Shown here: piece by piece, positions 5,211-44,862 of the stretch
Layout of the letters: every line of letters starts with the position of its first letter
How positions within the stretch are numbered: position 1 is the stretch's first letter
Assembly: GCA_947630835.1 (NCBI GenBank)
Contig: CANRIZ010000014.1
Location: 1-64,000, forward strand
Reading direction: 5' to 3'
DNA from: an uncultured Clostridia bacterium
GTDB taxonomy: Bacteria; Bacillota; Clostridia; Oscillospirales; Acutalibacteraceae
DNA length: 64,000 bases
Translations under genes and position numbers: made by a program
The notes under the pieces: generated by a model
The model's input: the letters and a program-made list of their open reading frames with translations, nothing else
Told to the model about the DNA's origin: nothing
Databases searched by the model: none

Positions 5211-5900
5211 GTGAAAAAGGGACTTACAAACAATCAGCTTAAAATAATCGCCCTTATAGCAATGACCGTAGACCATATAGGCGTTGTACTGTTTCCGGAT
5301 AATGCGGCTTTCCGAATTATCGGCAGGCTTGCTTTCCCGATTTTTGCCTATATGATTGCGGAGGGCTGCAAGTATACCAAAAACAGAAAAAAATATCTAA
5401 CCGTAATAGCGTGCGAGGCTTTGGCGTGCCAGCTTGTGTACCTTGCGGCGGAAGGCTCGCTTTACTTAAGCATTTTCGTTACGTTCACATTGAGCATATC
5501 GCTTATTTATGCGCTTGATTGGGCGAAAAAGGAAAAAAGCTTCGGCAGGATTTCTGCCGCCGCGGCGTCGGTAGTGGCTGTGTTCTTTATTTGCGTAATA
5601 ATGCCCGAATTGCTTAGCGGCACGGATTTCGGCGTCGATTACGGCTTTTTCGGAGCGCTTACCCCCGTTGTGATTTATTTTACAAAAGATGATAAACGTA
5701 AAAAGCTTATGTCCCTGTTTATTATGTGCGTTTTATTGAGCTTTGCATATGGGGATATACAATATTTCTGCGTGTTCTCGGTTCTGCTTTTGGCGTTCTA
5801 CAACGGCGAAAGGGGAAAGCGCAATATAAAATATTTTTTCTACATTTATTATCCGCTTCACCTTGCGGCGATATATTTGATTTCGCTGATATTACGGTAG
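5211..5900 (+). CDS. TraX family membrane protein
   Basis: The N-terminal NNQLKIIALIAMTVDHIG and the following RIIGRLAFPIFAYMIAEGC are the conserved TraX signature. TraX in F plasmids acetylates pilin, but most chromosomal Firmicute members are uncharacterised and may be membrane acyltransferases. The protein is about 229 residues with roughly eight hydrophobic segments. The track starts at TTG 5202; GTG 5211 is better placed, about ten bases after AAAGGA, whereas TTG lies almost on top of it. It follows the symporter gene on the same strand by about 80 bases. Confidence 0.88.
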   Translation: MKKGLTNNQLKIIALIAMTVDHIGVVLFPDNAAFRIIGRLAFPIFAYMIAEGCKYTKNRKKYLTVIACEALACQLVYLAAEGSLYLSIFVTFTLSISLIYALDWAKKEKSFGRISAAAASVVAVFFICVIMPELLSGTDFGVDYGFFGALTPVVIYFTKDDKRKKLMSLFIMCVLLSFAYGDIQYFCVFSVLLLAFYNGERGKRNIKYFFYIYYPLHLAAIYLISLILR

Positions 5901-5989
5901 AAAACAAATACGGCGAAAAAACGGCGTTTGAACGCTCGACGAAACGCTTTAACCGAAAAATAAGCAAGAACTTTGGGAAAATCAAATTA

Positions 5990-6025
5990 AAAAGGCGGAA
6001 GCGCAAAATCGCTCCCGCCTTTTTT
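5990..6025 (+). terminator. Rho-independent terminator after traX-like gene
   Basis: AAAGGCGGAAGCG and CGCTCCCGCCTTT form a stem with one mismatch and a six-base loop, followed by a run of T. The 290 bases from here to cassette A contain no gene or signal that I can support. Confidence 0.8.
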
Positions 6026-6315
6026 CATTGCACAAGTTCAGTAAGCTGTGTATTTGTATAGCTGTCATAAAAATAATTTATTTTGGTTTTATCTTTATAA
6101 CCCCTACAATAGGTGTAATTATTTTGTTGGTTTACACCGCCTGTTATCGACATGCTTTTTGCTCTTTTGCCGCAGTACCGTTTTTTTTGACTTAATTGCC
6201 GTCTTCCGCATATTTTAGCTAAGCATCACATTAATATAGAATTTGATTATGTCCCGTAATATATTTTTTCATAAATACTATTATTTTAATTTCTGCTTTT
6301 GTGTCGGCCCATTGC

Positions 6316-6606
6316 TTACCACTCAACCCACTCCATATCTGCCTCAGCTTCCCAAAATGTTTTGCCTTCAAAAATAGGCTCATTTTGGGCAAGCTCTAAG
6401 CATTTTTCTAAAGTGGAAGCTGTTTTGTTAAACACGGTTTTAGAATAGTTCCCGTTTTTGTCCCAAGTGTCAATCACATAAGAGTATTCATTCTTTTCTT
6501 TATCAAATATAAGACCGTGAAAAAAGTATTTCACGTCTTTATATATCACAGCACATTCCTCAAATGTGGTTTGGTCAATAAATTTGTATACATTTCCGCC
6601 TTTCAT
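6316..6606 (-). CDS. Cassette A: small acidic partner protein (FWE.E.DM.WV family)
   Basis: A 96-residue protein with no signal peptide or membrane segment and no family that I recognise. It begins MKGGNVYKFID and ends GKTFWEAEADMEWVEW. Three relatives lie in cassette B (41961, 42652, 43337) with the same FID start, a central YF.G stretch and the same aromatic-acidic end. Its ATG overlaps the stop of the MGGRGTF gene by four bases (ATGA), so the two are translationally coupled. The acidic character and fixed position after the partner resemble an immunity protein or antitoxin; that role is inference. It is the last gene of the cassette. Confidence 0.75.
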   Translation of the reverse strand: MKGGNVYKFIDQTTFEECAVIYKDVKYFFHGLIFDKEKNEYSYVIDTWDKNGNYSKTVFNKTASTLEKCLELAQNEPIFEGKTFWEAEADMEWVEW

Positions 6607-6980
6607 AAATTCAGCCCCTTAAAATATTTTTTGTATTTTTTATATTCGTTCTTTGTCAATAGTCGCGGTGTTCTATCAGCAAATTTGTCTCGCTTATATT
6701 CGTGAATATGCAATACCGGATTATGATTTCCCGTCAAATTAGGTTCCGGATGATATGCAATTTCTCTTACAAGATAATGGTCTTTATCATATTCTCTGTA
6801 CATCTTAAATTTCCCGTCAGGATGTAATTGTATATAAGCACCACTTGAATGTGCTTCTGCCGGTAATCCTTTTGAATTGCCGTCTTTGCCTTGCAATACT
6901 TTCACACCGTCAATTTTTCCAACAGTTTCATATGTATATGCAATATTATTACCTGCCGCAAATGTACCTCTGCCGCCCAT
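6603..6980 (-). CDS. Cassette A: MGGRGTF family protein
   Basis: A 125-residue protein of unknown function starting MGGRGTFAAGN. Conserved positions shared with the three cassette B copies are YTY..V, DGVKVL, LP.EAHSS.AY, a DG turn, EIAYHPEP, LHIHEY and a C-terminal KKYKKYFKG. The invariant His residues in HSS, YHPEP and LHIH would suit a metal-dependent or nuclease-like active site, but no known fold is assigned. There is no signal peptide. The start follows the DUF4417 stop by one base (TGATATG). The small acidic gene overlaps its end. A toxin-like or effector role is inferred from arrangement only. Confidence 0.75.
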   Translation of the reverse strand: MGGRGTFAAGNNIAYTYETVGKIDGVKVLQGKDGNSKGLPAEAHSSGAYIQLHPDGKFKMYREYDKDHYLVREIAYHPEPNLTGNHNPVLHIHEYKRDKFADRTPRLLTKNEYKKYKKYFKGLNL

Positions 6981-6981
6981 A

Positions 6982-7605
6982 TCAGCGCACCACCTTTCTT
7001 GAAGATTGGTAGTCCACCGACACGATGTTTCCTTCCATTTCGGGAAACGGAGTACCGAGCACGATGATTTTATCGGGTTGCAAACGCTCTAACATTTCGT
7101 TGTAACCACGCATAAAGCCTATACGGGAACTTTTACACCCGATCATACCAACGGCAACCGTGCCGCCTTGCTCTACGCCGTCAAAACAAAATTCAAAGCT
7201 ACGGGCATCACTCCAACTGATAGTCGGGATAACTGTTTTGCCCTTACTTTGCCAATATGCACCCACCCAACGATTTTTTGCAACGCTTTCAAGCTGCCGC
7301 CATAAATCCATATCGGCGTAGGTTGAAAAATCGGGAGTAAGCAGAAACGCATATTGAGAATAGCGTTTCAATGAACGATCGGGGTTATCATATGTTCCCG
7401 AAAAACGATAATCGTCAACAAAGAAATGCACGCCTTTTTTCTTGTTTACATCGTTATCGTTCATCTTTGTGTCAGAGCAGGCTATCAACATAATATCATC
7501 GGTAGATAGCGATTGTTTCTTGACAAGGGGTACACCCCACTTGCCAACGGGCGTAAAAGAATTTCGCATAAAAAGAGGGTTGCCCCTCATAACTTTACTT
7601 GTCAT
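6982..7605 (-). CDS. Cassette A: DUF4417 domain protein
   Basis: A 207-residue protein matching the DUF4417 family. VHFFVDDYRFSGTYDNP (about residue 57), LLTPDFSTYADMDLWRQL, PTISWSDARSFEFCFDG and the Gly-rich IGFMRGYNEMLERLQPDKII are family landmarks. DUF4417 proteins are scattered in phages, plasmids and integrative elements; their biochemical role is not established. The copy in cassette B (43997-44620) is closely similar along the whole length. The ATG follows GGAGGTG by seven bases. Downstream genes are coupled to it. Confidence 0.88.
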   Translation of the reverse strand: MTSKVMRGNPLFMRNSFTPVGKWGVPLVKKQSLSTDDIMLIACSDTKMNDNDVNKKKGVHFFVDDYRFSGTYDNPDRSLKRYSQYAFLLTPDFSTYADMDLWRQLESVAKNRWVGAYWQSKGKTVIPTISWSDARSFEFCFDGVEQGGTVAVGMIGCKSSRIGFMRGYNEMLERLQPDKIIVLGTPFPEMEGNIVSVDYQSSRKVVR

Positions 7606-7685
7606 ATTATGACACCTCCGGAATTATATATGTTTTTTGAATGACTTTTTCACAGCAGAAAATCGAACATTTTGTACGATTACTG

Positions 7686-7714
7686 TTGCATTTTTCTCCG
7701 GAATGTGCTAATAT
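7686..7714 (+). promoter_or_regulatory. Predicted promoter of the cassette A small RNA
   Basis: TTGCAT, 17 bases, TAATAT on the plus strand, pointing away from the DUF4417 gene. The spacer contains one arm of an inverted repeat (CTCCGGAATGTGC) whose other arm (GCACATTCGGAG) lies downstream of the expected start. Cassette B has the same arrangement. Confidence 0.45.
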
Positions 7715-7720
7715 ATATTT

Positions 7721-7797
7721 ACCAAAATACGAATGGGCACATTCGGAGATTAACACTGTATTGATTGCGCAACAATCTGTACAGTGTTTTCTTTTTT
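7721..7797 (+). ncRNA. Candidate divergent small RNA, cassette A copy
   Basis: A transcript of about 77 nt starting near 7721 would contain ACCAAAAUACGAAU, a short CGAAU/AUUCG hairpin, a GGAGAUU stretch, and a strong hairpin (AACACTGTA with TACAGTGTT, plus an inner GATTG/CAATC) followed by TTTTCTTTTTT. The equivalent place in cassette B has the same parts in the same order (CCAAGACGAAU, CGAAU/AUUCG hairpin, GGGGAAUU, terminator hairpin). It is convergent with the ImmA/IrrE gene. The box TTACCAAAA at its start also occurs twice at the XRE promoter. This is a prediction from structure. Confidence 0.45.
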
Positions 7798-7845
7798 GCT
7801 TTTCAACAATCAATTCACAACACCGTCCTTTCCATTAATTTTATA

Positions 7846-8394
7846 TTACACAGCCACTTTGAAAAGCTGAAGCAATCGTATTTCGTAATTGGTATAATCC
7901 TTATTGCCGTAAGTCAACCATTTGCGATAGTAAGAGAAGACGTAGTTTGCTGCTTCAAGACTGATGTCAAAATGCTTGTAAACCTCGTGAGCATCCTTTA
8001 ATTCCAACTTATGTATGAGTACGGGCGGAGCAAGAGCGTATTTTGCAAAGAATTTCGCTTCAGCTTCAGCCAATTCGCTTTCTTCGGTGTGATCCAAGAC
8101 AATATGCCCACATTCGTGACTTATGGTGTTGTTAATACGCCTGTAGCTTTTTGCATCGTTATAAAAAATGTACCACACGCCGTCTTTTCTGACAGAGAAT
8201 CCGTCTTCGCTTTCTTGCATCATAAGTTGACATGCTTCTTCGGATTTTGAGGAATAAGGGACTACAATTGCGCCAAGTTTTGTTGCCATTTCAAAACCGC
8301 TTATAGGAATGCAGCGAATATTAAGTTCTTCAAAAGTGTTGACAACAATCTCTTTGATTTCCTCACAGCGCTTATCGGATAATTTAAATGCCAA
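7846..8394 (-). CDS. Cassette A: ImmA/IrrE family metallopeptidase
   Basis: A 182-residue cytoplasmic protein with the zinc-peptidase motif HECGHIVLDH near residue 93 and a downstream Glu cluster (EAEAKFFAKYAL) typical of the family, then a helical C-terminal part. ImmA-type peptidases cleave a partner XRE repressor when a trigger is sensed, as in ICEBs1 and temperate phages. The gene starts two bases after the end of the XRE gene, as expected for such a pair. The likely target is therefore the neighbouring XRE protein. Confidence 0.9.
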   Translation of the reverse strand: MAFKLSDKRCEEIKEIVVNTFEELNIRCIPISGFEMATKLGAIVVPYSSKSEEACQLMMQESEDGFSVRKDGVWYIFYNDAKSYRRINNTISHECGHIVLDHTEESELAEAEAKFFAKYALAPPVLIHKLELKDAHEVYKHFDISLEAANYVFSYYRKWLTYGNKDYTNYEIRLLQLFKVAV

Positions 8395-8396
8395 TA

Positions 8397-8708
8397 TTAA
8401 TCCTCCCCGAACAGAGCAGAAATCAGCGCCCGTTTTTGCTTTTCCGTCATTGTTGCGGAGTTCCTTGCCAATAAACGCTCTACCTTTGGGAAATTGAAAT
8501 TATCGGGCTCTATACCAAGCAGATAATCCGATGTTGTATGCAAAGCGGTGGCAATATTCGCAAGCATATCCGCTTTTGGCTCCCTGTCACCGGAAACATA
8601 ACGAGAGAGCGTCGCTTCGGTTGTGTTAATTCTGTCGGCAAGCTCTTTTTGCGTTATACCTTGTTTTTGCAATAGGCTTGATAACCTTTGTCCAAATGCT
8701 TTACTCAT
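8397..8708 (-). CDS. Cassette A: XRE family transcriptional regulator
   Basis: A 103-residue protein with an N-terminal Cro/C1-type helix-turn-helix (ITQKELADRINTTEATLSRY, then SGDREPKADMLANIATAL) and a short helical tail. It is the first gene of cassette A and is coupled to the ImmA/IrrE peptidase gene. The promoter has two TTACCAAAA boxes 21 bp apart that cover the -35/-10 region, suggesting autorepression. A third box lies at the predicted small RNA start. AAGGAG precedes the ATG. Confidence 0.9.
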   Translation of the reverse strand: MSKAFGQRLSSLLQKQGITQKELADRINTTEATLSRYVSGDREPKADMLANIATALHTTSDYLLGIEPDNFNFPKVERLLARNSATMTEKQKRALISALFGED

Positions 8709-8748
8709 AGTATAATTCTCCTTATTTTCGGGTGACTTTTAATTTGAC

Positions 8749-8785
8749 TTACCAAAAGTATAATCTATATTACCAAAAAAGTCAA
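8749..8785 (-). promoter_or_regulatory. Cassette A promoter with paired TTACCAAAA operator boxes
   Basis: On the minus strand TTGACT, 17 bases, TATACT forms the promoter. On the plus strand TTACCAAAA occurs at 8749-8757 and 8770-8778, exactly 21 bp apart, overlapping the promoter. AAGTCAA/TTGACTT also form an outer inverted repeat. A fit for XRE repressor binding. Confidence 0.65.
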
Positions 8786-8854
8786 GAACTTTTTTACAAT
8801 AATCACAATATTTTGTTATAAATTTAAGAACTAACACTATATAAGGATATAAGG

Positions 8855-8893
8855 AAAAATCACGGTGGAGAAATTACTTTCCCCGCCGTGATT
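8855..8893 (-). terminator. Rho-independent terminator after the GDG-repeat lipoprotein gene
   Basis: On the minus strand AATCACGGCGGGGAAA pairs with TTTCTCCACCGTGATT around a five-base loop and is followed by TTTTCC. It closes the ypeB-lipoprotein transcript and separates it from cassette A. Confidence 0.75.
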
Positions 8894-8975
8894 CTCGCTA
8901 ACGGCAATATGCTTTCGCAACAGTTGCCCTGTGAGCGCCGAGCCAAACAGCCCGGCTTTTAGTTTTAATCGGCTT

Positions 8976-27406: not shown

Positions 27407-27432
27407 CTATAAAAGCTTTACGAAAAATAAAT

Positions 27433-27527
27433 AACCGGGGGTGCTGGCGCTAAGCCGGCTGAGATTACGGATATTGCTTCGTTGACCCTTTAACCTGATA
27501 CGGATAATGCCGTCGTAGGAAGTATAA
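27433..27527 (+). ncRNA. TPP riboswitch (THI element)
   Basis: The conserved parts are all present: GGGGGTGCTGGCG, GCCGGCTGAGATTA, GACCCTTTAACCTGATACGG and the closing ATAATGCCGTCGTAGGAAGT. It senses thiamine pyrophosphate and lies directly upstream of thiT, with an intrinsic terminator in between. Confidence 0.97.
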
Positions 27528-27542
27528 AGAAAAAGTTTTCTT

Positions 27543-41960: not shown

Positions 41961-42251
41961 TTAACCGAATAAGACTGTGATATCTTGTTCTGCCTCGTAA
42001 ATGGTTCTTCCGTCAAAAAGTTTGGCTTTCTCAAATTGCTTAACACATTCGGCATGATTTTTGCCGTGACAACGAAAAATGTAATTCTCATCTCCAAAGC
42101 ATTCGAATATTACAAATTCCACAAGCGTCGTATCATTCTCGTATACCTGGGATTCCATAAAATACCGTTTTCCGTTATACTCAAACTCTTTTTCCGGACC
42201 GCCCATTGTCAATAAATCGTTGATAAATTCAGCTAAAGTATTTCCTTTCAT
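41961..42251 (-). CDS. Cassette B: small acidic partner 3
   Basis: A 96-residue protein related to the other FWE.E.DM.WV proteins but the most divergent: it starts MKGNTLAEFINDLL, has FEYNGKRYFMES in the middle, and ends GRTIYEAEQDITVLFG, where the usual FWEVEKDMQWVDC is altered. It belongs to the third pair, whose MGGRGTF gene is frameshifted, so it may be under relaxed selection or specialised as an orphan partner. ATG 42251 is preferred to TTG 42254. Last gene of cassette B. Confidence 0.65.
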   Translation of the reverse strand: MKGNTLAEFINDLLTMGGPEKEFEYNGKRYFMESQVYENDTTLVEFVIFECFGDENYIFRCHGKNHAECVKQFEKAKLFDGRTIYEAEQDITVLFG

Positions 42252-42257
42252 CAATGG

Positions 42258-42637
42258 TTACCCCTTAAAAAATGATTTGTATCGTTTATATTCGGTGCGT
42301 GTTAATTTGCGCTTCACAGTAGTTGGGGAATTATGATAATCTATTCCCGGCTTTTGATGAATATGAATATGCAGCAATCCCCTTTGCCGAGACTCGGTTC
42401 ATGATGATACCCAATTTCCAAAGTAATTTCGTGATTTTCGTTATATTCTCGATATTGATGAAAAACGCCGTCTTTATCGAGAAGAATATAACTAAAACTC
42501 GAATGTGCCTCTTCGGGCAATTTATAGGATTTAGATTTATCAATAGGTTGCAAAACTTTAACACCATTGATTTCGTCAACAATTTCGAAAGTATAAGGAA
42601 CCGGATTTCCGCTTGCAAAAGTACCTCTTCCACCCAT
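42258..42637 (-). pseudogene. Cassette B: MGGRGTF protein 3, frameshifted
   Basis: The frame starts MGGRGTFASGNPVPYTF and keeps LPEEAHSSFSY and EIGYHHEPSL, then after a GGGG run the original frame reads CCIFIFIKSRE and stops. The neighbouring frame continues with LHIHIHQKPGIDYHN and ends EYKRYKSFFKG before TAA at 42258, the expected family C-terminus. One indel near 42380 therefore splits an otherwise complete gene. It is either a natural frameshift mutation or a sequencing or assembly error. Confidence 0.75.
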
Positions 42638-42653
42638 ATCAGCGCACCACCTT
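42621..42653 (-). repeat. Duplication seam: copied end of the DUF4417 gene before pair 3
   Basis: The minus strand reads AAGGTGGTGCGCTGATATGG, identical in cassette A to the end of DUF4417 (Lys-Val-Val-Arg-stop) and start of the MGGRGTF gene. Here no DUF4417 gene precedes it; only its last codons were copied with the pair. Confidence 0.75.
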
Positions 42654-42942
42654 AACAATCTACCCACTGCATATCCTTTTCAACTTCCCAGAAGGTTTTT
42701 CCGTTCCAAATTTTTGCATTTTCAAAGTCGGTAATACAATCTGAAACAGACAACCGAGAAGTTGAGAAGATAGTAGAGCTACAGGTAAGATTATAGATTT
42801 CAAGCACTACCTTAATAATTTTTCCCTTTTCGTCCTTTGTAACTTGGCAGCCGTTGAAAAAGAATTTTTTGCCGTCATATATTACATAGTGGTCTTCATA
42901 AGATAATTTATCAATGAAATCTTTTGCATTTCCGTCAATCAT
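42652..42942 (-). CDS. Cassette B: small acidic partner 2
   Basis: A 96-residue protein, MIDGNAKDFIDKLSYED at the start and GKTFWEVEKDMQWVDC at the end. YDGKKFFFNG lies in the middle. Its ATG overlaps the stop of MGGRGTF gene 2 by eight bases, which implies translational coupling. It is one of four members of this unrecognised family in the window and the closest in layout to the cassette A copy. An immunity or antitoxin role is inferred only from position and acidity. Confidence 0.75.
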   Translation of the reverse strand: MIDGNAKDFIDKLSYEDHYVIYDGKKFFFNGCQVTKDEKGKIIKVVLEIYNLTCSSTIFSTSRLSVSDCITDFENAKIWNGKTFWEVEKDMQWVDC

Positions 42943-43321
42943 ACCATTTTCGTCCTTTCATATATTTTTTGTATTTTTCAAAAGTTTGTCTGTCCAAATA
43001 TTGAGCAGGCCCGTGAGTAAAATCCTTATCGTAATAATGAATGTGAAGCACAGGATCATGATGCCCCGTTAGTCGAGGTTCGGGATGATAGGCAATTTCC
43101 ATTTTCAGCATATGATCTTCCTTGCCGTAAATTCTAAGCATACCCATTGTTCCGTCTTTGTGGAGCTTTAAGTACATTTCGCTTGAATGTGCTTCGGCGG
43201 GGAGATCATGTAAACCGGTTCCCGGTATTCCTATGAGGACTTTTACGCCATCATATTTATCGACAGTCTGATATGTATAAGGAACCGGATTTCCTGCCGC
43301 AAAAGTACCTCTTCCGCCCAT
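42935..43321 (-). CDS. Cassette B: MGGRGTF protein 2
   Basis: A 128-residue intact member of the MGGRGTF family: MGGRGTFAAGNPVPYTYQTV, LPAEAHSSEMYLKL, EIAYHPEPRLTG, VLHIHYY, and KYKKYMKGRKWYD at the end. The C-terminal third differs most from copy 1 and the cassette A copy, so specificity may lie there. It is preceded by a copied fragment of the DUF4417 gene end, and the partner gene overlaps its stop. Confidence 0.75.
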   Translation of the reverse strand: MGGRGTFAAGNPVPYTYQTVDKYDGVKVLIGIPGTGLHDLPAEAHSSEMYLKLHKDGTMGMLRIYGKEDHMLKMEIAYHPEPRLTGHHDPVLHIHYYDKDFTHGPAQYLDRQTFEKYKKYMKGRKWYD

Positions 43322-43337
43322 ATCAGCACACCACCCT
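43305..43337 (-). repeat. Duplication seam: copied end of the DUF4417 gene before pair 2
   Basis: The minus strand reads AAGGGTGGTGTGCTGATATG before MGGRGTF gene 2, a slightly diverged copy of the DUF4417 end plus the one-base spacer. Confidence 0.7.
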
Positions 43338-43615
43338 TAACAGTCTACCCACTGCATATCCTTTTCAACTTCCCAAAAGGATTTCCCACCGAAGATTTTT
43401 GCGCTGACAAACTCTGAAACGGGATAGTTTTTATCTTTTGAATAGGCACGCCATTCAAAACGGCTGTCAGAAGGTTCCAAAACATAAAGCTCCAGCGTCG
43501 GTGTTTTGTTTTCCAAATAGCCTTGTATAAAATATTTATTCCCGTTGTAGAGAAAAAAACGCTCATCGCCATAATACAGACCATCGATAAACTCTTGTGC
43601 ATTTCCGTTTATCAA
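43337..43615 (-). CDS. Cassette B: small acidic partner 1
   Basis: A 92-residue member of the small acidic family: INGNAQEFIDGLYYGD at the start, YNGNKYFIQG in the middle, and GKSFWEVEKDMQWVDC at the end, nearly identical to partner 2 at the C-terminus. The start is TTG overlapping the TGA stop of MGGRGTF gene 1 (TTGA), so its translation should depend on that gene. The middle of the protein is the variable part. Confidence 0.72.
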   Translation of the reverse strand: MINGNAQEFIDGLYYGDERFFLYNGNKYFIQGYLENKTPTLELYVLEPSDSRFEWRAYSKDKNYPVSEFVSAKIFGGKSFWEVEKDMQWVDC

Positions 43616-43995
43616 GATAATTTCACTCCCTTCAAATATTTTTTATACCTTTTAATTTCTTCCGATGTCATCAAACGTGGCGTTCGGTCTTGAAAATTGT
43701 CTCTGCTATATTCATGAATATGTAGAACATTCTCCGATCTATTTCCATTGTTCAATTTCGGCTCCGGGTGATATGCAATCTCTCGAATGAGATAGTGGTC
43801 TTTGTCATAAAAACGCATTTCATGGAATGTGCCGTCTGGTTTTAGTTTGATATAAGCGCTGCTAGAATGTGCTTCGTCGGGCAGACTGTGCTTCCCGTTT
43901 ATCCCTTCTAAAACCTTTACATCCTCAATATAGCCGACGGTTTTGTATGTATAATCCACTGGATTTCCTACCGCGAAAGTACCTCTTCCTCCCAT
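43612..43995 (-). CDS. Cassette B: MGGRGTF protein 1
   Basis: A 127-residue member of the family, closest to the cassette A copy: MGGRGTFAVGNPVDYTYKTV, LPDEAHSSSAYIKL, REIAYHPEPKL, VLHIHEYSRDNFQDRTPRL and KRYKKYLKGVKLS. Its ATG follows the DUF4417 stop by one base (TGACATG), as in cassette A. No signal peptide or membrane segment. Conserved His residues suggest metal binding or catalysis; function unknown. Confidence 0.75.
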   Translation of the reverse strand: MGGRGTFAVGNPVDYTYKTVGYIEDVKVLEGINGKHSLPDEAHSSSAYIKLKPDGTFHEMRFYDKDHYLIREIAYHPEPKLNNGNRSENVLHIHEYSRDNFQDRTPRLMTSEEIKRYKKYLKGVKLS

Positions 43996-43996
43996 G

Positions 43997-44620
43997 TCAC
44001 CGCACCACCTTTCTTGAAGACAGATAGTCTACCGGTACAATATTGCCCTTCATCTCGGGAAACGGCGTACCGAAAACGATGATTTTTTCGGGCTGTAACC
44101 GCTCGAGCATTTCGTTATAACCGCGCAAAAAGCCAAGGCGGGAACGCTTGCACCCGATCATACCCACAGCGACTGTTCCGCTTTGCTCGACGCCGTCAAA
44201 GCAGAATTCAAAACTGCGGCTGTCGCTCCAGCTGATGGTTGGAACCACCCTCAATCCTTTGCTTTGCCAATACGCACCTACCCAGCGATTTTTCCCAACA
44301 CTTTCGATCTGCCGCCACAAATCCATATCGGAGTATGTCGAGAAATCCGGTGTAAGCAAAAATGCATATTGAGAGTATCTCCTTAGCGAGCGTTCGGGAT
44401 GATCATATATTCCGCTGAACCGATAATCGTCAACAAAAAAGTGAACGCCTTTTTTCTTGTTTCCTTCGCTATCATTTGACCTTGTGTCGGAACATGCCAC
44501 TAAGTTGATTTTGTCAAAAGGAAGATTTTGCCTTTTAACAATGGGGATACCCCATTTTCCTGCGGTTTCATAAGAGTTCCGCATAAAAAGCGGATCTTCA
44601 CGCATCTGTTTACTTTTCAT
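43997..44620 (-). CDS. Cassette B: DUF4417 domain protein
   Basis: A 207-residue protein closely similar to the one in cassette A throughout (KKKGVHFFVDDYRFSGIYDH, LLTPDFSTYSDMDLWRQIES, TISWSDSRSFEFCFDGVEQS, IIVFGTPFPEMKGNIVPVDY). ATG 44620 gives MKSKQMREDPLFMRNSY, aligned with the cassette A start; the track start at 44647 adds nine unrelated residues. DUF4417 is an uncharacterised family frequent in mobile DNA. It heads the pair array and is coupled to MGGRGTF gene 1. Confidence 0.88.
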   Translation of the reverse strand: MKSKQMREDPLFMRNSYETAGKWGIPIVKRQNLPFDKINLVACSDTRSNDSEGNKKKGVHFFVDDYRFSGIYDHPERSLRRYSQYAFLLTPDFSTYSDMDLWRQIESVGKNRWVGAYWQSKGLRVVPTISWSDSRSFEFCFDGVEQSGTVAVGMIGCKRSRLGFLRGYNEMLERLQPEKIIVFGTPFPEMKGNIVPVDYLSSRKVVR

Positions 44621-44699
44621 AATGAGTATAATCCTTTCCGGGATCATTACGGAAACGGCATTGGATCCCGTGCTTTTGTTGAAAATTTACCGCTTCCAC

Positions 44700-44728
44700 T
44701 TGATTTTTGCCCCGAAATATGTTATACT
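44700..44728 (+). promoter_or_regulatory. Predicted promoter of the cassette B small RNA
   Basis: TTGATT, 17 bases, TATACT on the plus strand, placed as in cassette A. The spacer and -10 contain one arm (CCCCGAAATATGTTATA) of an imperfect inverted repeat whose other arm is TATAACAGTATTCGGGG. Confidence 0.45.
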
Positions 44729-44734
44729 CAAAAA

Positions 44735-44808
44735 GCCAAGACGAATATAACAGTATTCGGGGAATTGCATCGTTATAACTGCTCGAACAGCTATAACGGT
44801 GCTTTTTC
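44735..44808 (+). ncRNA. Candidate divergent small RNA, cassette B copy
   Basis: A predicted transcript of about 74 nt with GCCAAGACGAAU, a CGAAU/AUUCG hairpin with an eight-base loop, GGGGAAUU, and a terminator hairpin (CGTTATAACTG with CAGCTATAACG) followed by CTTTTTC. The order of parts matches cassette A, although the terminator sequences are different. The T run is short. It lies between the peptidase and DUF4417 genes on the opposite strand. Expression is not shown by sequence alone. Confidence 0.42.
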
Positions 44809-44862
44809 TGTATATAAGTTAATCATAAAGATATTCCTCCTTTCCGTTCATTCACAGCGCAC

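What the first reader, a model, noticed from the sequence alone, without database searches (positions are those of the whole stretch)
7686..7797. Conserved divergent small RNA candidate between peptidase and DUF4417 genes
At the same place in both cassettes the plus strand shows a promoter (TTGCAT-17-TAATAT in A, TTGATT-17-TATACT in B), then CCAA..ACGAAT, a CGAAT/ATTCG hairpin, GGRGAWT, and a terminator hairpin with T-rich end (7721-7797; 44735-44808). The terminator sequences differ while the architecture is kept, which points to selection for an RNA of about 75 nt. An inverted repeat overlaps the promoter in both. RNA partners of this size regulate or neutralise toxins in several systems.
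Basis: partly seen in the sequence, partly recalled or inferred. Interest (0 to 1): 0.75.

Follow-up and report, generated by a model that had tools for sequence, protein, structure and literature searches.

The report
Antisense RNA controlling DUF4417 gene cassettes
Upstream of an uncharacterised gene (DUF4417) that sits in small, defence-like bacterial gene cassettes there is a widely conserved small RNA of about 75 nucleotides, read from the opposite strand, which most likely acts as an off-switch on the start of that gene's messenger RNA.

Summary
Forty-six DUF4417 loci, mostly Clostridia, carry the same element: an extended sigma-70 promoter, two hairpins and a T-rich terminator, encoded divergently between an XRE-ImmA/IrrE pair (or another gene) and DUF4417. 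A covariance model then recovered it at further DUF4417 loci not used to build it, and at no other kind of place.

Wobble pairs in the terminator stem show that the plus strand is the RNA under selection (G-U 67, A-C 13). The inverted repeat over the promoter covaries strongly (79.8% paired; 31-46% when slid). In many loci its promoter-side arm also matches the DUF4417 ribosome-binding site (RBS), locus by locus.

Best explanation: a cis-antisense RNA to the leader of a read-through mRNA; covering one arm frees the other to close the RBS. The geometry resembles pMV158 copG-rnaII-repB, the logic dinQ/AgrB. No transcript was tested, the arms show no strand preference, and the RBS match was not reproduced in seven further loci: RBS closure is inferred. 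DUF4417 is predicted to have a TGT/DpdA-like fold; toxin neutralisation is not shown. New variant of a known kind.

The parts
7721..7797 (+). small RNA, cassette A (start inferred 7 nt after the -10 box)
   Evidence: fold z -6.9; covariance model R1 hit 82.4 bits (A is in the model); terminator polarity over 46 loci
7686..7714 (+). extended sigma-70 promoter TTGCAT-17-TAATAT with TG
   Evidence: aligned in 35 loci with invariant T, G and TA...T columns; not above chance on this sequence alone
7696..7708 (.). arm1 of the inverted repeat, in the promoter spacer up to the -10 box
   Evidence: covaries with arm2 in 35-46 loci
7737..7748 (.). arm2 of the inverted repeat, inside the small RNA
7730..7745 (+). 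hairpin H1 of the small RNA (CGAATG/CATTCG)
   Evidence: plus-strand G-U 30, A-C 12 over 46 loci
7752..7797 (+). terminator hairpin and T-rich tail
   Evidence: G-U 67 vs A-C 13 over loci
7603..7826 (-). inferred DUF4417 mRNA leader: terminator complement, arm2', arm1', RBS
   Evidence: fold z -4.5 with RBS open; RBS closes onto arm1' when the sRNA-covered stretch is blocked
7606..7623 (-). DUF4417 ribosome-binding region that matches arm1
   Evidence: locus-specific match z 4.4-7.9 in the main set; not reproduced in 7 further loci
7607..7813 (-). possible leader ORF (68 aa, TTG start) ending just before the DUF4417 start codon
   Evidence: ORF list; SD-like motif upstream enriched over loci; not conserved as a protein across the family
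6982..7605 (-). DUF4417 gene, cassette A
   Evidence: PF14386 E 6.2e-48; predicted TGT/DpdA-like fold
7846..8394 (-). ImmA/IrrE-type peptidase (CapP-like)
   Evidence: PF06114; PADLOC capP 3.5e-8
8397..8708 (-). XRE-type repressor (CapH-like)
   Evidence: PF01381; PADLOC capH 1.5e-12
6603..6980 (-). MGGRG protein, downstream (toxin-like by features only)
   Evidence: family alignment with invariant HxH; no database match
6316..6606 (-). partner of the MGGRG protein (immunity-like by features only)
44735..44808 (+). small RNA, cassette B
   Evidence: fold z -5.8; model R1 hit 82.1 bits (B is in the model)
44700..44728 (+). promoter TTGATT-17-TATACT with TG, cassette B
44710..44727 (.). arm1, cassette B
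44743..44762 (.). arm2, cassette B
44618..44842 (-). inferred DUF4417 mRNA leader, cassette B
   Evidence: fold z -4.6; RBS-arm1 match TTATACTCA plus CCCGGAA
43997..44620 (-). DUF4417 gene, cassette B (conserved start 44620)
   Evidence: PF14386 E 1.4e-49

Best explanation
A cis-antisense RNA that sets a translational switch. Shown by sequence comparison: a small plus-strand RNA with its own promoter, two hairpins and a terminator is conserved next to DUF4417; the promoter-overlapping inverted repeat is under selection for complementarity; the RNA is complementary to the region between the co-directional upstream genes and DUF4417. Inferred: DUF4417 is translated from an mRNA that reads through this region from the upstream promoter. 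In that mRNA arm1' can pair with arm2' (RBS open) or with the DUF4417 RBS (closed). The antisense RNA, made constantly, binds the terminator complement and arm2' through matching stem-loops, frees arm1', and so closes the RBS. Strong upstream transcription, for example after repressor cleavage by the ImmA-type protease, outruns the antisense RNA and lets DUF4417 and the downstream genes be made.
For: Terminator-stem wobble polarity on plus: G-U 67 vs A-C 13, p 6e-10; 42 vs 10 in 28 loci chosen for low similarity. H1 polarity 30 vs 12. Arm complementarity own vs other loci z 11.0, 8.9, 6.8 for 26, 15, 10 non-redundant loci; RBS-arm1 z 7.9, 5.3, 4.4; RBS-arm2 not robust (z 2.2, 0.7, 1.5), as expected if arm1' is the shared switch strand. 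Covariation score 0.416 vs 0.09-0.13 slid. Blocking the sRNA-covered stretch raises RBS-arm1' pairing from 0.34 to 0.70; up by more than 0.1 in 31 of 46 loci, down in none. Own RBS 0.69 vs swapped RBS 0.32, p 2.6e-11 over related loci. Upstream genes co-directional in nearly all neighbourhoods read. In L093, with no regulator gene, a promoter-like TTTACA-16-TATAAT lies upstream of the leader. Model R1 found nine places in 147 genomes, all at this position: seven next to DUF4417, two at contig ends after XRE-ImmA, and five more full-length elements at DUF4417 loci not in the model. Arms confirmed in 7 of 7 new loci. Several arms contain bulges, which suits an RNA helix better than a protein operator.
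Against: No transcript data. Arms show no wobble polarity (32:32; 39:40). RBS-arm1 polarity is not above that of swapped pairs in non-redundant loci (14:11; swapped 434:317). The RBS-arm1 match was not significant in 7 further loci (mean fraction of others at least as good 0.39). Eight of 46 leaders fold towards a more open SD when blocked. Arm spacing is fairly narrow (mostly 23-33 nt), so it does not exclude an operator. Loci are related, so p values are too small. Equilibrium folding ignores the kinetics of a growing mRNA.
Confidence: 0.52

Rival explanations
1. The RNA is a real antisense regulator of the leader but acts without the RBS switch: it blocks ribosome loading or a leader ORF upstream of the terminator complement, or triggers RNase III, as IstR-1 and pMV158 RNAII do. 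Arm pairing would serve only leader folding or stability.
For: A Shine-Dalgarno-like motif is enriched upstream of the terminator complement (mean -8.2 vs -5.0 kcal/mol shuffled). In A a 68-aa ORF ends just before the DUF4417 start. The RBS match fails in L150 and L152.
Against: The locus-specific RBS-arm1 match in the main set is then unexplained.
Confidence: 0.2
2. The inverted repeat is a DNA operator for a cassette protein (DUF4417, the XRE protein or another) that represses the small RNA promoter and its own gene. Arms covary because the protein's specificity drifts.
For: No strand preference in arm mismatches; arm1 abuts the -10 box, a usual repressor position; spacing between arms mostly 23-33 nt.
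Against: Bulges inside arms; in 26 non-redundant loci the spacing runs over a whole helical turn without phasing (R 0.21, p 0.32), with extremes of 17 and 44; the RBS and arm2 do not covary robustly though both should be the same site; the XRE proteins of A and B match different HTH families although their arms are alike.
Confidence: 0.14
3. The small RNA works in trans or as a protein partner: an RNA bound, modified or used by DUF4417, or an RNA antitoxin of a downstream toxin. Its antisense position would be incidental.
For: Tight linkage to DUF4417; the predicted fold matches RNA- and DNA-modifying transglycosylases.
Against: Phage DUF4417 loci lack it, so the fold does not need it. Type II loci keep DUF4417 with a different leader. 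Little in the RNA outside the stems is constant.
Confidence: 0.1
4. Only the mRNA leader matters: a structured cis element of DUF4417, with chance or vestigial plus-strand promoter and terminator.
For: Type II loci show a conserved leader hairpin whose wobble pairs favour the mRNA strand, with no clear plus promoter.
Against: In type I the promoter is preserved in 35 aligned loci, and the terminator stem is selected on the plus strand.
Confidence: 0.04

Closest known systems
pMV158 copG-rnaII-repB (antisense RNAII)
   Same: Small antisense RNA from a gene overlapping the intergenic region of a regulator-effector operon, transcribed against it, ending in an intrinsic terminator; target lies just upstream of the effector start and translation is inhibited (PMC4485353).
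   Different: RNAII is 48 nt with one hairpin; here about 75 nt with two hairpins and a covarying repeat over the promoter. The effector is DUF4417, not a replication initiator. Function untested here.
dinQ/agrB (type I toxin-antitoxin)
   Same: DNA-damage-linked control; divergent RNA whose binding rearranges the mRNA to sequester the Shine-Dalgarno sequence (PMC5668327).
   Different: In dinQ/agrB the genes do not overlap and the toxin is a membrane-active peptide; here the RNA is inferred to overlap the mRNA leader and the target is a 207-aa predicted TIM-barrel protein.
pIP501 RNAIII attenuation of repR mRNA
   Same: Antisense RNA inside the leader acts together with a repressor protein (PMC4981023); the competing-arm logic is recalled from general knowledge, not tested.
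   Different: Its outcome is premature transcription termination; a conserved attenuator terminator on the mRNA strand was not seen here (T-rich tract after the H1 complement in A only).
CapH/CapP-controlled immune operons
   Same: HTH repressor plus ImmA/IrrE-type protease encoded before an effector operon (PMC13373217; PADLOC hits).
   Different: No antisense RNA is described there in the passages read; DUF4417 operons are not a listed immune system.

Membership tests
cis-encoded antisense RNA (pMV158 RNAII-like) | short transcript with own promoter and intrinsic terminator | tested here: inconclusive
   promoter and terminator conserved, terminator stem selected on the plus strand; transcript itself not observed
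cis-encoded antisense RNA (pMV158 RNAII-like) | encoded opposite the leader of the effector mRNA, between upstream gene and effector | tested here: met
   position and co-direction in nearly all neighbourhoods read; the read-through mRNA is inferred
cis-encoded antisense RNA (pMV158 RNAII-like) | inhibits translation or transcription of its target | not testable with these tools
   only folding predictions
type I toxin-antitoxin | target encodes a small toxin protein, typically under 60 aa (PMC11264685 abstract) | tested here: not met
   target is a 207-aa protein with TGT/DpdA-like predicted fold
antisense-induced transcription attenuation (pIP501) | leader of the target mRNA carries a conditional intrinsic terminator | tested here: inconclusive
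   terminator-like hairpin on the mRNA strand in A; T tract not conserved on reading alignment A3
any Rfam family | covariance-model match at gathering score | tested here: not met
   no match at the element in the window or in 14 loci
CapH/CapP control pair | HTH repressor followed by ImmA/IrrE peptidase before the effector genes | tested here: met
   ssDNA activation and cleavage not testable
TGT/DpdA superfamily (DUF4417) | TGT-type TIM barrel | tested here: inconclusive
   VIA-align Z 10.0 to TGT and 9.9 to DpdA 7ui4; Foldseek E above 0.001; active-site residues not checked

The most novel reading that the evidence does not exclude
A damage-induced, defence-type cassette with two locks, a CapH/CapP repressor pair on transcription and a dedicated antisense RNA switch on translation, whose effector is a stand-alone member of the TGT/DpdA fold acting with toxin-immunity-like proteins; in the most radical form the small RNA is itself bound or used by DUF4417.
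Probability: 0.12. Interest if true: 0.85.

Novelty: new variant of a known kind. Interest (0 to 1): 0.55.

Why it matters
It adds an apparently undescribed antisense RNA family (no Rfam match; three papers in the searched library mention DUF4417), tightly linked with a gene family of unknown function across many gut Clostridia. If right, these cassettes are held off by RNA on top of a damage-sensing repressor, as expected for costly or toxic immune genes. It gives a direct handle (delete the RNA promoter, watch the cassette switch on) on what DUF4417 and its toxin/immunity-like neighbours do.

Tried and rejected
1. Simple trans anti-Shine-Dalgarno sRNA: RBS vs arm2 similarity and duplex energy not locus-specific (z 0.7-2.2). 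2. Wobble polarity as proof that the arms act as RNA: no preference either way. 3. One shared operator motif at all three sites: RBS and arm2 do not covary robustly. 4. Arm spacing as an argument against an operator: the first measure (loops 12-53) used ungapped stems and mixed inner with outer parts of the arms; a better measure gives mostly 23-33 nt, so the argument is weak (no phasing in 26 non-redundant loci, R 0.21; R 0.33 in all related loci). 5. Membership in a known RNA family: no Rfam match. 6. One common leader peptide: a start after the SD-like motif is frequent, but ORFs range from a few codons to 68 aa and differ in sequence; left open. 7. Conserved pseudoknot between the UUGGCG loop of the mRNA strand and a CGCCAA near the RBS, as recalled for IncI plasmids: looked for by eye, not conserved. 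8. First version of the terminator polarity test included pairs with the T run, which biases towards G-U; redone without them. 9. MGGRG protein fold: moderate model (pLDDT 80), no convincing match in Foldseek.

Full report
WHAT WAS CHECKED. The promoter, the CCAA..ACGAAT start, the CGAAT/ATTCG hairpin, the GGRGAWT stretch, the terminator hairpin and the inverted repeat are all in the window at the stated coordinates in both cassettes. On the two sequences alone the promoter is no better than chance, but the folded RNAs are far more stable than shuffled sequence (z -6.9 and -5.8). The question is therefore decided by relatives.

RELATIVES. The two DUF4417 proteins are 80% identical. A third, more distant copy lies on another contig of the same genome. 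A scan of species genomes gave 80 loci. In 46 loci, window copies included, reading away from DUF4417 gives the same order: a TTGACA-like -35, 16-18 nt, usually TG-N-TANNNT, one repeat arm over the spacer and -10, the second arm usually 23-33 nt further on, then a terminator hairpin and T run. Aligned, columns T3, G24, T26, A27 and T31 are invariant in 35 sequences. About 17 further loci (type II, mostly Lachnospiraceae) have a different conserved leader hairpin and no obvious plus promoter.

THE PLUS-STRAND RNA IS UNDER SELECTION. In an RNA stem G-U is tolerated and A-C is not, so the strand on which mismatches look like G-U is the functional one. Scoring both kinds alike and leaving out pairs with the T run, the terminator stem has 67 G-U against 13 A-C read on plus (p 6e-10), and 42 against 10 in 28 less similar loci. 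The 5' hairpin gives 30 against 12. This is the best evidence here for a real transcript. It is not a transcript measurement, and related loci inflate the p values.

THE REPEAT. Arm sequences differ between loci (CTCCGGAATGTGC, GGAAAGGATATGC, GCAGAAATATG and so on) but remain complementary within each. On alignment A5, 79.8% of cells pair against 31-46% in slid controls, with 104 double changes against 12-33 (15 arm pairs and 4 terminator pairs together, arms alone 76.0%). Own-versus-other permutation gives z 11.0, 8.9 and 6.8 for 26, 15 and 10 non-redundant loci. In seven loci not used before, arm complementarity was again locus-specific. The arms themselves have no wobble polarity. That result alone would allow a DNA operator. 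Bulges in several arms and a spacing that varies over a helical turn without phasing in 26 non-redundant loci suit RNA better, but the spacing argument is weak because most loci lie within 23-33 nt.

LINK TO THE RIBOSOME-BINDING SITE. Within the main set the DUF4417 RBS resembles the promoter-side arm locus by locus (z 7.9, 5.3, 4.4), while RBS and the second arm do not robustly (z 2.2, 0.7, 1.5). Examples are TTATACTCA in B, GCTACAAT in L047 and GCTAAAATAAC in L045. In the inferred mRNA this means the promoter-side arm can pair with either partner. Folding the leader, RBS pairing to that arm rises from 0.34 to 0.70 when the sRNA-covered stretch is blocked, by more than 0.1 in 31 of 46 loci and falling in none; mean SD openness falls from 0.33 to 0.25, with 19 loci closing and 8 opening. 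With RBSs swapped between dissimilar loci the pairing is 0.32 against 0.69 for the own RBS. In seven new loci the RBS match was clear in L148, suggestive in L140 and absent in L150 and L152; as a group it was not significant. RBS closure is thus a supported inference, not a general fact.

READ-THROUGH mRNA. In nearly all neighbourhoods read, the gene before the leader runs the same way as DUF4417: usually an XRE protein and an ImmA/IrrE peptidase, sometimes a Fic protein (L036, L050, L081), an AbiLi-like ATPase (L075) or a fused XRE-peptidase (L053). In A only 48 nt separate the peptidase stop codon from the end of the small RNA, leaving little room for another promoter. L093, with recJ-like coding sequence upstream, has a promoter-like TTTACA-16-TATAAT before the leader. 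A Shine-Dalgarno-like motif is enriched just upstream of the terminator complement. In A a 68-aa ORF from there ends just before the DUF4417 start; elsewhere the ORF is often only a few codons. Ribosome standby or a leader peptide is possible but unproved.

SPECIFICITY. Covariance model R1, run on 147 genomes, hit nine places in seven genomes: seven next to DUF4417 and two at contig ends directly after XRE-ImmA. It also found five full-length and one truncated element at DUF4417 loci from other genera not used in the model, and no match with E up to 1 in the 38 phage DUF4417 loci. One genome (G028) has a diverged DUF4417 with the same arrangement.

MECHANISM. The best-supported reading is a cis-antisense RNA acting on the leader of the upstream-gene-DUF4417 mRNA, most likely by making the RBS inaccessible. 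The same geometry is known in pMV158, where RNAII is encoded against the copG-repB intergenic region and inhibits repB translation (PMC4485353). Antisense-induced sequestration of a Shine-Dalgarno sequence is known for dinQ/AgrB (PMC5668327). A repressor working with an antisense RNA is known for pIP501 (PMC4981023). CapH+CapP pairs control immune operons in response to DNA damage (PMC13373217), so the cassette may be damage-induced with the RNA as a second lock. That last step is inference from gene similarity.

WHAT DUF4417 IS. The AlphaFold2 model (pLDDT 90.5) matches tRNA-guanine transglycosylases and the DNA preQ0 insertase DpdA best (VIA-align Z 10.0 and 9.9 over about 160 residues), though Foldseek alone gives no match below 0.001. 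No activity is claimed.

NOVELTY. No Rfam family matches, and only three papers in the searched library name DUF4417. The kind of regulator is known; the family, its target and the repeat built over the antisense promoter appear new. Hence a new variant of a known kind.

Noticed in passing
window 6982-7605 and 43997-44620 (-): DUF4417 is predicted to have a TGT/DpdA-type TIM-barrel fold (VIA-align Z 10.0 to TGT, 9.9 to DpdA 7ui4), unlike the 'nuclease' label of phrog_940. Active-site residues were not compared.
   Followed up: partly
window 6316-6980 and 41961-43995 (-): Downstream pairs of an MGGRG protein with invariant HxH and a roughly 95-aa partner, one pair in A and three in tandem in B, look like toxin-immunity modules. 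No database or convincing fold match.
   Followed up: partly
L036, L050, L081, L075, L053, L093: The gene before the leader varies: Fic (SoFic-like), AbiLi-like ATPase, a PD-Lambda-2_B-like fused XRE-peptidase, or only a recJ-like gene. The DUF4417 module seems to join different defence-like genes.
   Followed up: partly
L061, L065-L068, L071-L076, L078, L080-L082, L084: Type II leaders: GGGGATACGAATGCC..GGCCTTCGTATCCCC hairpin and a constant CTACCAA hairpin loop, with no clear plus-strand promoter; wobble pairs favour the mRNA strand. A possible second regulatory RNA family.
   Followed up: partly
window 5885-8975, compared with L198: The nearest relative G001 (87% identical in the neighbouring protein) has no cassette here; about 590 bp with another small gene lies between the same flanks. 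Presence of the cassette is variable.
   Followed up: partly
L003, G000:C7:66038-66827: A third cassette in the same genome with a diverged DUF4417 also carries the RNA (69 bits; it is in the model).
   Followed up: yes
L152 2100-2425: An imperfect second copy of part of the element (TTACCAGATTAAGGGTATAGATACTGGGAGGCA) lies between DUF4417 and the RNA.
   Followed up: no
L083 upstream of 5001: The loop between the arms carries an extra CCGAGT/ACTCGG stem, as if a helix had been inserted into an RNA loop (arm spacing 44).
   Followed up: no
window 27427-27538 (+): TPP riboswitch, 62.9 bits.
   Followed up: no
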